From Ferrovibrio sp. (GTDB lineage Bacteria; Pseudomonadota; Alphaproteobacteria; Ferrovibrionales; Ferrovibrionaceae), in contig NZ_PEKV01000009.1 in the NCBI RefSeq assembly GCF_002796975.1, positions 65,098-128,588 of the forward strand: 63,491 nucleotides of DNA, in the 5' to 3' direction. The notes beneath the pieces were generated by a model that was given only the letters and a program-made list of their open reading frames with translations, was not told the origin of the DNA and did no database searches. Each line of letters begins with the position of its first letter. The first letter of the stretch is position 1. Shown here piece by piece: positions 34,344 to 37,978 of the stretch. Position numbers and translations under genes: made by a program.

Positions 34344-34507
34344 CCGGGCCGCGGGCAAGGCTGCGTTAACCATTGGGCCCCTAAATATTGTGTGCTACTG
34401 GCGCGCGTTTTCCGCCGCGCACCGGTCGTTGTGTGTTTCAATGCGGAAATGACGCGATCCGACCGGGCCTGGATACCGATTCCTGCGCCCCGACGGGGGA
34501 GGTTGCG

Positions 34508-37500
34508 ATGCTGATCAAACATCCGCGTGCCGATATGGCCGCCAATGCCGCGAAGTCGGCGAGCGAACAGGCGATTGGCGAGGCCGATACCCGCGCCGCT
34601 GCCCTGGTCGGCACGCCCATGCTGGAGCGCCGCCGCCTGATGATGGTGGGCATCGGCGCTGGCATCAGCCTGTTGTGGGTGCTGTTCTGCGCCACCTACA
34701 TCAACAATTCGATCGGCTGGACCAATCTGTGGCACGCGCTGCCGCATGAGATCGGTGCCTTCATCGCCGGCGTCGCTGCGCCGCTCGCCTTCCTCTGGCT
34801 GATGCTGCTCAACATGTGGCGCGGCATGGCGATCAAGCGCCAGTCCGCCGCCCTGCACGAACTGCTGCTTGATCTCAGCTACCCCACCCCGGAAGCCGAG
34901 CGCCGGGTTTCGGCCTTGGCAGGTGCGCTGCGCCGTCAGGCGCGTGAAATGGAAGAGGCTGCGCAGTCCGCCACCGCGCAGATCGCCACGCTCGGGGAGA
35001 CCATGGCCGGCCAGCAGCAGGAACTGCTGGCTGCCGCCACCGGCGCCCGTGAACAGGTCGCCCAGCAGGCGCGCCAGATCACCGGCACGTTGCACCAGTC
35101 GTCGCAGTCGCTGCTGTCGGCCGCCGAACAGGTCAACCGCGACCTCGATAATACCGTGAAGGGCCTCGCCGGCCGTTTCGAGGAGCAGAGCCGCGCGCTG
35201 GTCGATGCCGCCGACAAGGTTGGCAGTGAGATGAATTCCAAGGTCACCGGTCTGGGGCAGACTGTTTCGACCCAGGCGCAGGTGTTGCTGCAGGCTGCCG
35301 ATGTGATCGTGCGTGAGGTGGAAACCGCCCGCGGCATCTTCCAGGGCAAGGCCACCGAGATCGCCCGCATCACCTCGGCGATCCAGTTCCAGAATGAGCG
35401 CGTGGATGAGTTGTCGCGCCGCCATGGCGAGTTGATGGATCAGGCGGTCACCCGCGCGGCCGAAGTGGCGCAGCAGATTGCCGAGCAGCTCGAACACAAG
35501 ATCGTCGCACTGGAGCAGGCGGTTACCCGCGCCGGCGGCGAAGCCGGCCGTATCGGGCTCGGTTTTGCCGAAAGCGCACAGATCATCACCACTGCTGCCG
35601 AAGTCACGGTGGCGCGCGCCACCGCCGCCAGCGAGAGCTTCGGCCGCGAGAGCCTGACCTTCAGCAACGCCAGCCAGAAGGTGATCGACAACGCTGAAGC
35701 CGCTGGCACCGTGCTGCGCGAACGCGTGCGCGAGATCGAACATGCCACCGGCACTACGATCAGCCGCATCCGCGACATCGGTGAAACCATTCGCTCTGAG
35801 GTCGGCGCACTCGATGATCAGGGCGCCCGTGTGGCCGAACGCCTGCGTGTCTCCAGCGATGAGATGCGCACCCGCACCAATGCACTGGAACAGGCTGGCG
35901 CCGGCGCGACGCGCCAGGCCGATGCCTTTGCCGAGGCCGCGACACAGGCCGAACAGCGCCTCAAGCTCACCGGCGACCTTGTCCGCCATCAGGCGGATCA
36001 GCTCGGCTCGGCAGCCGAACTGGCCGACCAGCGCCTGGCCCAGGCTGGCGACGCGCTGCGTCGTGAAGGCGCCAGCATGACGCAGACCCTGCAGCAGATC
36101 GCCGACCGCGCCATGCGCGCCGGCGACGAACTGAAGCAGCGCGCCGATGTGCTGGATGAAACCGCCGGCCGTGCGCTCTCCAAGATAGGTGAGGCGGACG
36201 ACAGCATTCGTACCCGCATCGAGACGTTGGCCCAGTCGGGCCGCGACGCCACCGCGATGGCGGCGCAGGTGCAGGACACCATGCAGCAGGCCAATGCGCT
36301 GCTGGCCCAGGCGGCCCAACGCACCGACGACCAGATCGGTGCTGCCGGTGCGTTGCTACGCGGCCATGCCGAGCAGTTCGGCCTCACCATCGACGGCGTT
36401 GCCAAGCGCATCAACGAGACTGGTACGGCCGTACGCGACCAGGTGGATGGCCTGGACCAGGCTGCCGCCCGCACGGCGCAACGCCTGCGTTCGGCCGGCG
36501 AAAGTGCTGGTCAGGATGCCGTACAGTTGCAGGCCGCCGCCGAGCGCGCTTCGCAGCGCCTGCATCAGGTCAGCGAAACCGCGCAGGTTCAGTCTCATGC
36601 ACTCAGCGCCGCCGCCGAACGCGCGGCGATGGAGTCGCAGCTGGCCGGAAGCGCCGCGCAGGCGCGTGCCAAGGATCTGCAGGATCTGGCTGTCAATGTT
36701 GCCGAGGCGATGGCGACCCTGGCCGAACGCGCCACGGCGCAGACTTCGGCACTGCTGACCATGAGCGACAAGGCGCAGATCGAGGCGCAGGCGCTGAATG
36801 CCGCCGCCGAGAAGGCGACTGGCAGCATCAACACCGCAGGCGACACTGCACGCATCCGTTCGATCGAACTGGGCGATGCGGCCCAGAGCGTGGTCGATCG
36901 CACACTGGAACTGCGCAGCACCATCCACGAGCAGGCCGGCGCACTTACGTCGCTGTCGTCGGAGCTTACGCGTCAGGCCGAGAGCATCCGCGAGAATTTC
37001 CGCGGTCGCGTGCAGGAACTGGCCGAAGCCTCGGATGCGGCGATCCTCAAGACCGCCAATATCGGCGACAGCTTCCGCCGTCAGGCGACGGAAGTCGCCC
37101 GTGTGTCGGACGAAGCCGTCACCCGCGTCGAGCAGGTCGGCGCAACCTTCGATGCCCGTGCCCGCGAGATCAACCTCGCCGTGGGCAACGCTTCGGGCCG
37201 CATCGACGATGCCAGCGAAGTGCTGCGTAACCGCACGCGCGAACTGGCGAATATCGTCGAAGACGCGATGAAGCAGACCGATCGGATGAGCGACGGTTTC
37301 CGTCGCCAGGCCGACGAGGTCGATACCCGCGCTGCCCGTCTGTCGGAAAAAGTCACCGAGATCGGCGAACGCATGGCTCGCACCGGCACGGAATTCGGCG
37401 CTGTCACCGATCGCGCCACCGCGCGTGCCGCCGAGACCGCCGAGACGCTCGGCCAGCGCGCGCAGGAACTGGCCTCTGCTGCCGCCCGTGCCGCCAGCGA

Positions 37501-37978
37501 AGCGGCCTCTGCCGAAGCCAGCCTCAAGGCCGATGCCAAGGCACTGGCCGAAGCGGCGCGTACGGCGAGCGTGGAAGCAGAATCGTTGCGCAAGGCCACA
37601 CAGGCGCTACGCGGCGAGCAGTTCCTCAAGACCGCCGCCTTCATCACCGGCCACCTCAATTCGATGGCCATCGACATTTCGCGCTTGCTGAACCGCGACC
37701 TGTCGGAAGAACTGTGGCGCCGCTACTACAAGGGCGAGCGCGGCCTGTTCACCCGCAAGCTGATCGACCAGCGCGATCTCGACAAGATCCGCGGTAAGTA
37801 TCAGGAGAATGGCGAGTTCCGCGACTTCACCGACCGCTACGTGGCCGAATTCGAGCGCGTGCTGGCCGGTGCCAAGGGTGTGGAGCACGAGGAACTTCTG
37901 ACCTCGGCCTTCGTCACCGCCGATATCGGCAAGGTCTATCTGCTACTGCGCGAGGCGGTGGGCAAGTCGCGGCAGTAA
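34508..37978 (+). CDS. Membrane-anchored giant coiled-coil protein with 27 exact 25-residue repeats
   Basis: 1156 residues. Two N-terminal membrane segments (about 42-64 and 82-104) leave the rest in the cytoplasm. Residues 324-1026 parse into 27 units of exactly 25 residues, interrupted only by two 14-residue insertions (after units 6 and 17). Consensus: small/hydrophobic-Gly-acidic-x-hydrophobic-Arg at 1-6, then hydrophobic at about 9, 12, 16, 19 and 23, i.e. a 7+7+11 coiled-coil pattern. The final 130 residues form a different, globular-looking domain (LNRDLSEELWRRYYKGERGLFTRKL, then AFVTADIGKVYLLLREAVG). ATG 34508 follows GGGGGAGG. Architecture recalls polar scaffolds such as TipN (two TM plus coiled coil), but no homology is claimed. 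A 13-codon-spaced hydratase gene follows 15 bp later. Confidence 0.9.
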   Translation: MLIKHPRADMAANAAKSASEQAIGEADTRAAALVGTPMLERRRLMMVGIGAGISLLWVLFCATYINNSIGWTNLWHALPHEIGAFIAGVAAPLAFLWLMLLNMWRGMAIKRQSAALHELLLDLSYPTPEAERRVSALAGALRRQAREMEEAAQSATAQIATLGETMAGQQQELLAAATGAREQVAQQARQITGTLHQSSQSLLSAAEQVNRDLDNTVKGLAGRFEEQSRALVDAADKVGSEMNSKVTGLGQTVSTQAQVLLQAADVIVREVETARGIFQGKATEIARITSAIQFQNERVDELSRRHGELMDQAVTRAAEVAQQIAEQLEHKIVALEQAVTRAGGEAGRIGLGFAESAQIITTAAEVTVARATAASESFGRESLTFSNASQKVIDNAEAAGTVLRERVREIEHATGTTISRIRDIGETIRSEVGALDDQGARVAERLRVSSDEMRTRTNALEQAGAGATRQADAFAEAATQAEQRLKLTGDLVRHQADQLGSAAELADQRLAQAGDALRREGASMTQTLQQIADRAMRAGDELKQRADVLDETAGRALSKIGEADDSIRTRIETLAQSGRDATAMAAQVQDTMQQANALLAQAAQRTDDQIGAAGALLRGHAEQFGLTIDGVAKRINETGTAVRDQVDGLDQAAARTAQRLRSAGESAGQDAVQLQAAAERASQRLHQVSETAQVQSHALSAAAERAAMESQLAGSAAQARAKDLQDLAVNVAEAMATLAERATAQTSALLTMSDKAQIEAQALNAAAEKATGSINTAGDTARIRSIELGDAAQSVVDRTLELRSTIHEQAGALTSLSSELTRQAESIRENFRGRVQELAEASDAAILKTANIGDSFRRQATEVARVSDEAVTRVEQVGATFDARAREINLAVGNASGRIDDASEVLRNRTRELANIVEDAMKQTDRMSDGFRRQADEVDTRAARLSEKVTEIGERMARTGTEFGAVTDRATARAAETAETLGQRAQELASAAARAASEAASAEASLKADAKALAEAARTASVEAESLRKATQALRGEQFLKTAAFITGHLNSMAIDISRLLNRDLSEELWRRYYKGERGLFTRKLIDQRDLDKIRGKYQENGEFRDFTDRYVAEFERVLAGAKGVEHEELLTSAFVTADIGKVYLLLREAVGKSRQ

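What the first reader, a model, noticed from the sequence alone, without database searches (positions are those of the whole stretch)
35477..37585. Coiled-coil protein built from 27 exact 25-residue (75-bp) repeats
Residues 324-1026 divide into 27 consecutive 25-residue units without a single-residue slip, broken only by two 14-residue insertions. Hydrophobic positions follow 7+7+11 spacing, a heptad-heptad-hendecad coil that should be nearly straight. Such strict length with diverged sequence implies selection on register, e.g. a ruler or rod. The protein has two N-terminal TM helices and a distinct 130-residue C-terminal domain: a membrane-tethered rod about 100 nm long if fully helical (1.5 A per residue over 703 residues gives about 105 nm).
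Basis: partly seen in the sequence, partly recalled or inferred. Interest (0 to 1): 0.78.

Follow-up and report, generated by a model that had tools for sequence, protein, structure and literature searches.

The report
Membrane-anchored rod of 25-residue repeats
This gene makes a long, straight protein rod tied to the cell membrane; it belongs to a family of alphaproteobacterial proteins that includes organisers of the growing cell pole, and the rod's length hardly changes within a lineage.

Summary
Residues 324-1026 carry a strict 25-residue coiled-coil repeat (7+7+11; 3.57 residues per turn) with two 14-residue insertions. The repeat also runs further upstream, and the proline-free helical part is about 880 residues long.

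The protein is not an orphan. Its N-terminal two-helix membrane module and a conserved 133-residue C-terminal domain, absent from Pfam and NCBIfam, define a family found in 110 of 289 Alphaproteobacteria with a first profile and in 76 of 299 Pseudomonadota, all 76 in the class, with a broader one. It includes Sinorhizobium RgsE (the GPR homologue, identified by its 2,089-residue length) and a Caulobacteraceae orthologue whose 882-residue form matches TipN in length. Both known proteins organise new poles and contact Tol-Pal.

The 25-residue period is the commonest (top lag in 47 of 65 proteins). RgsE and its relatives switched to 22, which probably explains GPR's 'apolipoprotein' label. Rod length is fixed within genera (10 of 10) and across Caulobacteraceae (377 residues in 55 of 68, down to 29% identity). 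Across the class it ranges from no rod to about 2,400 residues. Best reading: a pole scaffold whose rod spaces a C-terminal hub from the membrane. Localisation is untested.

The parts
34508..37978 (+). coding sequence, 1156 aa; single copy in its genome
34637..34693 (+). transmembrane segment 1 (residues 44-62), preceded by ERRR
   Evidence: hydropathy
34751..34807 (+). transmembrane segment 2 (residues 82-100), followed by RGMAIKR; 19-residue loop between the two
34637..35026 (+). conserved N-terminal module (residues 44-173) with the YP motif; homologous in RgsE and Caulobacteraceae proteins
   Evidence: profile match
34928..35275 (+). first part of rod (residues 141-256), 25-residue repeat with 4-residue slips (29-residue units)
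35276..37534 (+). main rod, 25-residue units in one register from residue 257 to 1009, apart from two 14-residue insertions
35876..35917 (+). 14-residue insertion (residues 457-470)
   Evidence: phase jump near residue 464
36743..36784 (+). 14-residue insertion (about residues 746-759)
   Evidence: phase jump at residue 746
37577..37975 (+). C-terminal domain (residues 1024-1156), all-helical, conserved across Alphaproteobacteria

Best explanation
A membrane-anchored polar (new-pole or septal) scaffold, homologous at both ends to RgsE/GPR and, more weakly, to the Caulobacteraceae protein that is probably TipN. Two N-terminal helices hold it in the inner membrane. A proline-free coiled coil of 25-residue units, with 3.57 residues per turn, runs nearly straight into the cytoplasm, probably as an oligomer. 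The C-terminal helical domain at the far end is a docking hub. The rod sets a fixed distance and register between membrane and hub; within a lineage its length is locked, and in Caulobacteraceae it changes mostly in whole 11-residue steps, because other indels would break the core. Shown: architecture, repeat, homology, length conservation. Inferred: oligomer, extended state, polar localisation, hub role, recruitment through Tol-Pal.
For: N-module profile matches RgsE (E 1.7e-12), Brevundimonas (1.6e-7) and an 882-aa Caulobacteraceae protein (3.4e-5). The window's C-terminal domain matches S. meliloti 'kinesin', 2,089 aa, at 42% over 108 aa, E 8e-23, and the profile matches two 882-aa Caulobacteraceae proteins at E 7e-12 and 3e-13. 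Single copy; PopZ family present in the genome. Length: anchor distance 929 in 10 of 10 same-genus genomes, no gap in the rod at 68-97% identity; 377 residues in 55 of 68 Caulobacteraceae. Literature passages: RgsE/GPR at the growing pole, RgsE interacting with TolQ (PMC7327166, PMC8262873, PMC9938171); TipN at the new pole, in complex with Tol-Pal (PMC7403779, PMC9178275, PMC7391070); loss of GPR's last 10, 221 or 332 residues, which touch or include this domain, impairs function.
Against: No localisation, partner or phenotype data for this organism. The full-length AlphaFold model is useless (pLDDT 48), so extended versus folded-back is open. The rod can be absent (330-377 aa proteins in Rhodobacteraceae-like genomes) or very long, so it is not needed for whatever the two ends do. 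Three genomes of the same family had no match. The Caulobacter TipN sequence itself was not in hand. Neighbouring genes (ribonucleotide reductase, a MaoC/FAS1-dehydratase-like gene) give no hint of pole function.
Confidence: 0.66

Rival explanations
1. A general coiled-coil spacer or tether of the cell envelope, not tied to poles: same family by descent, but in this lineage the protein holds a cytoplasmic partner at a set distance from the inner membrane along the whole cell.
For: Rod length and even the rod's presence vary between lineages. Other Rgs proteins were not found in Rhodospirillales, and the authors allow a different role for distant RgsE homologues (PMC7327166).
Against: Both characterised relatives are new-pole proteins with Tol-Pal contacts; PopZ is present in the genome.
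Confidence: 0.2
2. A lipid-handling, apolipoprotein-like protein, as proposed for GPR: amphipathic helices that sort or sense lipids at the growing pole.
For: RgsE scores far above the Pfam cut-off for PF01442 (257.8 bits, 12 stretches); in 7-8 loci the gene lies next to MlaD/ABC_trans_aux genes, a lipid-transport type operon.
Against: The window protein scores 19.8 bits against a cut-off of 90. The PF01442 signal goes with the 22-residue period of the RgsE clade. The rod is proline-free with a narrow core at 3.57 residues per turn, not Pro-punctuated 22-mers (this property of apolipoproteins is recalled).
Confidence: 0.07
3. A chromosome-segregation hub as for TipN with ParA: the far-end domain captures ParA or another cytoplasmic ATPase at the new pole.
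For: TipN binds ParA in C. crescentus (PMC9178275); PopZ present.
Against: The C-terminal domain of the Caulobacteraceae orthologues is very divergent (E about 5e-6 to 3e-15, and below detection in four of 48 loci), so a TipN-specific partner need not be shared.
Confidence: 0.07

Closest known systems
RgsE of Sinorhizobium meliloti / GPR of Agrobacterium (growth pole ring protein)
   Same: Two N-terminal TM helices in a homologous module, long helical cytoplasmic rod, homologous C-terminal domain
   Different: About 2,100 aa; 22-residue period at 3.65 residues per turn, PF01442 above cut-off, proline-rich linker before the C-terminal domain; here 25-residue period at 3.57, no linker, no PF01442
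TipN of Caulobacter crescentus
   Same: Two TM helices then coiled coil; two Caulobacteraceae orthologues have exactly the published 882 aa; profile matches at both ends
   Different: Rod 377 residues, at 3.59 residues per turn, proline-rich linker, divergent C-terminal domain; the TipN sequence itself was not available, so identity rests on length, taxon and architecture
Apolipoprotein A1/A4/E family (PF01442)
   Same: Repetitive amphipathic helix
   Different: 19.8 bits against a cut-off of 90; different repeat length

Membership tests
class-wide family defined here: N-terminal two-TM module + rod + C-terminal domain | N-terminal module homologous to RgsE and relatives | tested here: met
   module found at E < 1e-3 in 74 of 77 proteins (12 of them seeds); RgsE 1.7e-12
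class-wide family defined here: N-terminal two-TM module + rod + C-terminal domain | C-terminal domain | tested here: met
GPR/RgsE subfamily | PF01442 apolipoprotein domains above cut-off | tested here: not met
   19.8 bits, cut-off 90; RgsE 257.8
GPR/RgsE subfamily | about 2,100 aa with 22-residue periodicity | tested here: not met
   1156 aa, period 25
GPR/RgsE subfamily | ring of foci at the growing pole; needed for rod shape | not testable with these tools
   needs microscopy and a mutant
TipN orthologue | sequence homology to C. crescentus TipN itself | not tested
   TipN sequence not held; Caulobacteraceae orthologues of 882 aa used instead
TipN orthologue | new-pole localisation, Tol-Pal and TipF/ParA contacts | not testable with these tools
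   needs experiment
SMC (TIGR02168) | score above NCBIfam cut-off | tested here: not met
   20.3 bits, cut-off 567

The most novel reading that the evidence does not exclude
Alphaproteobacteria share one ancient pole-organising protein, of which TipN and GPR/RgsE are divergent versions: a conserved membrane module and a conserved, so far unnamed C-terminal hub, joined by a coiled-coil rod whose ancestral 25-residue period makes it almost straight. The rod is a molecular spacer: its length is locked within each lineage, changes by whole helical steps (11 residues in Caulobacteraceae), and sets how far the hub stands from the membrane. GPR's 'apolipoprotein' nature is a by-product of a lineage switch from 25- to 22-residue units.
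Probability: 0.42. Interest if true: 0.77.

Novelty: new variant of a known kind. Interest (0 to 1): 0.62.

Why it matters
TipN and GPR are studied as separate organisers of bacterial polarity, linked in the passages I read only by remarks on similarity or analogy. A shared membrane module and C-terminal domain would make their mechanism comparable across the class and explain why GPR's last residues matter. A rod whose length is locked down to 29% identity, with most changes in steps of 11, makes a spacer or ruler hypothesis directly testable: change the rod by 11 or 22 residues against 3 or 5.

Tried and rejected
Orphan protein: rejected. DNA-level tandem repeat: none. Universal ruler in 25-residue units: anchor distance modulo 25 is not clustered across the class (n = 55, Rayleigh nR2 = 1.65; of 72 proteins with both anchors, 9 same-genus copies and 8 with other periods were dropped). 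Long rods go with periods of 3.6 or more: 8 of 12 rods of 1,400 or more against 2 of 54 shorter, but only 2 to 4 independent pairs on the tree, so no claim. Foldseek of the C-terminal domain against PDB: no match at E below 0.001; VIA-align best Z 7.2, generic helical bundles, so no fold is claimed new or known. Full-length AlphaFold: pLDDT 48, not used. Solved structures by sequence: nothing convincing. First repeat models with free training over-fitted or missed the insertions; the fixed-register model replaced them. Shared gene neighbourhood between the window and RgsE: none seen; Hpt (9 loci) and MlaD-type (7-8 loci) neighbours unite the RgsE branch with other lineages but were not found in 82 Caulobacteraceae loci, whose flanks are short. 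A near-DNA search of the plasmid collection did not name the organism. In one search, L240 (261 residues, extra internal proline) is counted among the 68 but was left out of the multiple-of-11 test.

Full report
OBSERVATION. The frame 34388-37978 (+) encodes the protein; ATG 34508 is supported because the 10 same-genus copies share MLIKHPRADM at that place. Over residues 324-1026 (35477-37585) hydrophobicity correlates at lags 25, 50 and 75 (z 11.2, 11.6, 10.4), identity at lag 25 (z 9.2). The Fourier peak is 3.568 residues per turn, power 87.4, shuffle maximum 10.5. A cyclic model puts two +14 insertions near residues 464 and 746 and no other slip in the stretch; 23 of 26 units prefer their own register when left out of training. 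Unit consensus (from the same call): A-x-E-L-A-x-A-A-E-R-A-x-x-R-(A/I/L)-x-x-A-G-(D/E)-x-(L/F)-R-R-(R/Q); position 3 (counting from 0) is I, L, M, V or F in all 26 units. Core spacing 4-3-4-3-4-4-3. The register extends up to residue 257; residues 141-256 use 29-residue spacing in places. No proline from 141 to 1024. At DNA level there is no tandem repeat.

FAMILY. Pfam and NCBIfam give nothing over cut-off, and the C-terminal domain has no family. Full-length search: 24 of 41 relatives. A profile of the C-terminal domain (15 rows) matches 110 of 289 Alphaproteobacteria; a broader profile (63 rows) matches 76 of 299 Pseudomonadota, and every one of the 76 is marked as own genome or 'same class' (of 20 unmatched genomes listed, 10 are of the class and 10 outside it; 203 unmatched were not listed). 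I fetched 60 further regions and extracted 73 proteins, all with the domain: N-terminal TM segment(s), rod, domain (crude hydropathy found only one TM segment in some and none in one cut protein).

NAMED ANCHORS. A plasmid-collection record of S. meliloti (3.7 Mb, filed as pSymB) holds a 'kinesin' of 2,089 aa whose C-terminal domain matches the window's at 42% over 108 aa, E 8e-23. PMC7327166 (passages read) gives RgsE as 2,089 aa with up to ten apolipoprotein domains, a GPR homologue, with distant homologues in Rhodospirillales; this protein has 12 PF01442 stretches. I therefore call it RgsE, by length and domains, not by locus tag. A contig scan with two divergent ~840-aa proteins returned 32 loci, titled Brevundimonas, Caulobacteraceae or Caulobacterales except for a few unclassified bacteria. 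In that family 55 of 60 genomes have the protein, and 40 of 41 in one unnamed genus of it. Two of that genus's loci give exactly 882 aa from the first ATG, the published length of TipN (PMC13170164, passage); the domain profile hits them at E 7e-12 and 3e-13. The N-module profile hits RgsE at 1.7e-12, Brevundimonas at 1.6e-7, and the two 882-aa proteins at 3.4e-5 and 0.22 for the whole sequence. Rod-less versions (330-377 aa) occur in genomes related to Ruegeria and Tritonibacter.

PERIOD. Among 65 proteins (nine same-genus copies dropped) the strongest hydrophobicity lag between 15 and 60 is 25 in 47, 50 in 3, 18 in 4, 22 in 4, 36 in 3, 29 in 2, 44 and 47 in 1 each. Among 66 rods (eight near-duplicates dropped) 44 peak at 3.560-3.582 residues per turn (25/7 = 3.571), 5 at 3.53-3.56, 7 at 3.582-3.60 and 10 at 3.60 or more; none lies at 3.52 or below. 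RgsE and its three nearest relatives form one clade (support 99) at 3.654-3.662, i.e. 22- or 11-residue units. PF01442 scores follow that clade: no match in the window's genome or in a genome whose rod has period 3.62. So GPR's apolipoprotein label most likely reflects its repeat length (inference). The fewest changes of period class on the tree is 4; the tree has many weak forks.

LENGTH. The distance between a motif in the N-module and one in the C-domain is 929 in 10 of 10 genomes of the window's genus; it is 875 in 2 of 2 and 831 in 2 of 2 of two other genera of the family (genera, distances). The 10-way alignment at 68-97% identity has no gap in the rod. In 68 Caulobacteraceae proteins, the longest proline-free stretch is 377 residues in 55; others are 388 (3), 399 (1), 421 (5), 641 (2), 348 (1) and 261 (1, extra proline). 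The 377-residue rods align without offset in 84 of 84 pairs tried, at 48% mean and 29% minimum identity, while the part behind the rod has 38 different lengths in the same 55 proteins, some of them cut at contig ends. Four of five other lengths differ from 377 by multiples of 11 (p = 0.0003 if each were random; the hypothesis was formed on seeing them). These 68 are the best-scoring 48 loci of two searches plus 20 lower-scoring ones, not all matches. Against a class-wide ruler: distances from 354 to 2,426 and no clustering modulo 25.

C-TERMINAL DOMAIN. AlphaFold gives a confident all-helical model (157 aa, pLDDT 91.8, pTM 0.78) in which the rod helix runs on to residue 1061. No PDB match below E 0.001. 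In GPR, deletion of 10 C-terminal residues gives misshapen cells when it is the only copy, and deletions of 221 or 332 residues block complementation, while rings still form without the last 332 (PMC8262873, passages). By homology with RgsE those last 10 residues lie in this domain's final helix (inference), a domain the passages I read do not mention.

MECHANISM. Two TM segments separated by 19 residues, with ERRR before and RGMAIKR after, put both ends in the cytoplasm by the positive-inside rule (established knowledge). Both characterised relatives sit at the new pole, cause ectopic poles or branches when overproduced, and contact Tol-Pal (PMC7327166, PMC5347347, PMC7391070, PMC7403779; passages). 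The window's genome carries a PopZ family gene. I infer a polar or septal scaffold whose rod spaces the C-terminal hub from the membrane. A fully helical rod from residue 141 to 1061 would be about 135 nm; oligomer state and whether it folds back are unknown (one search was uninformative).

LITERATURE LIMITS. Seven searches of the open-licence library listed no paper that I recognised as describing a 25-residue repeat or this C-terminal domain in TipN, GPR or RgsE; I read passages of ten papers and no whole text. GPR's similarity to TipN is already in print (PMC8546619), and so are RgsE homologues in Rhodospirillales (PMC7327166). Subscription papers, including the original TipN and GPR reports, were not read.

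Noticed in passing
L131:2078-2446 (-); also L064, L066, L088, L094-L096, L114, L116: A small Hpt-domain gene lies near the rod-protein gene on the opposite strand in 9 loci, including S. meliloti rgsE; a possible phosphorelay link.
   Followed up: partly
L094:7594-10000 (-) and similar in L064, L066, L081, L088, L103, L114; L116: ABC_trans_aux lipoprotein and MlaD-type genes sit downstream of the gene, on the opposite strand, in 7-8 loci.
   Followed up: partly
L134:3642-4631 and L135:3134-4231: Proteins of 330-377 aa with the TM module and the C-terminal domain but no rod, in genomes related to Ruegeria and Tritonibacter.
   Followed up: partly
L103: One lineage has a 29-residue period (lag 29 and 58; 3.622 residues per turn) instead of 25.
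   Followed up: no
L117: A 1,977-aa relative keeps the 25-residue register for 1,210 residues without a break.
   Followed up: no
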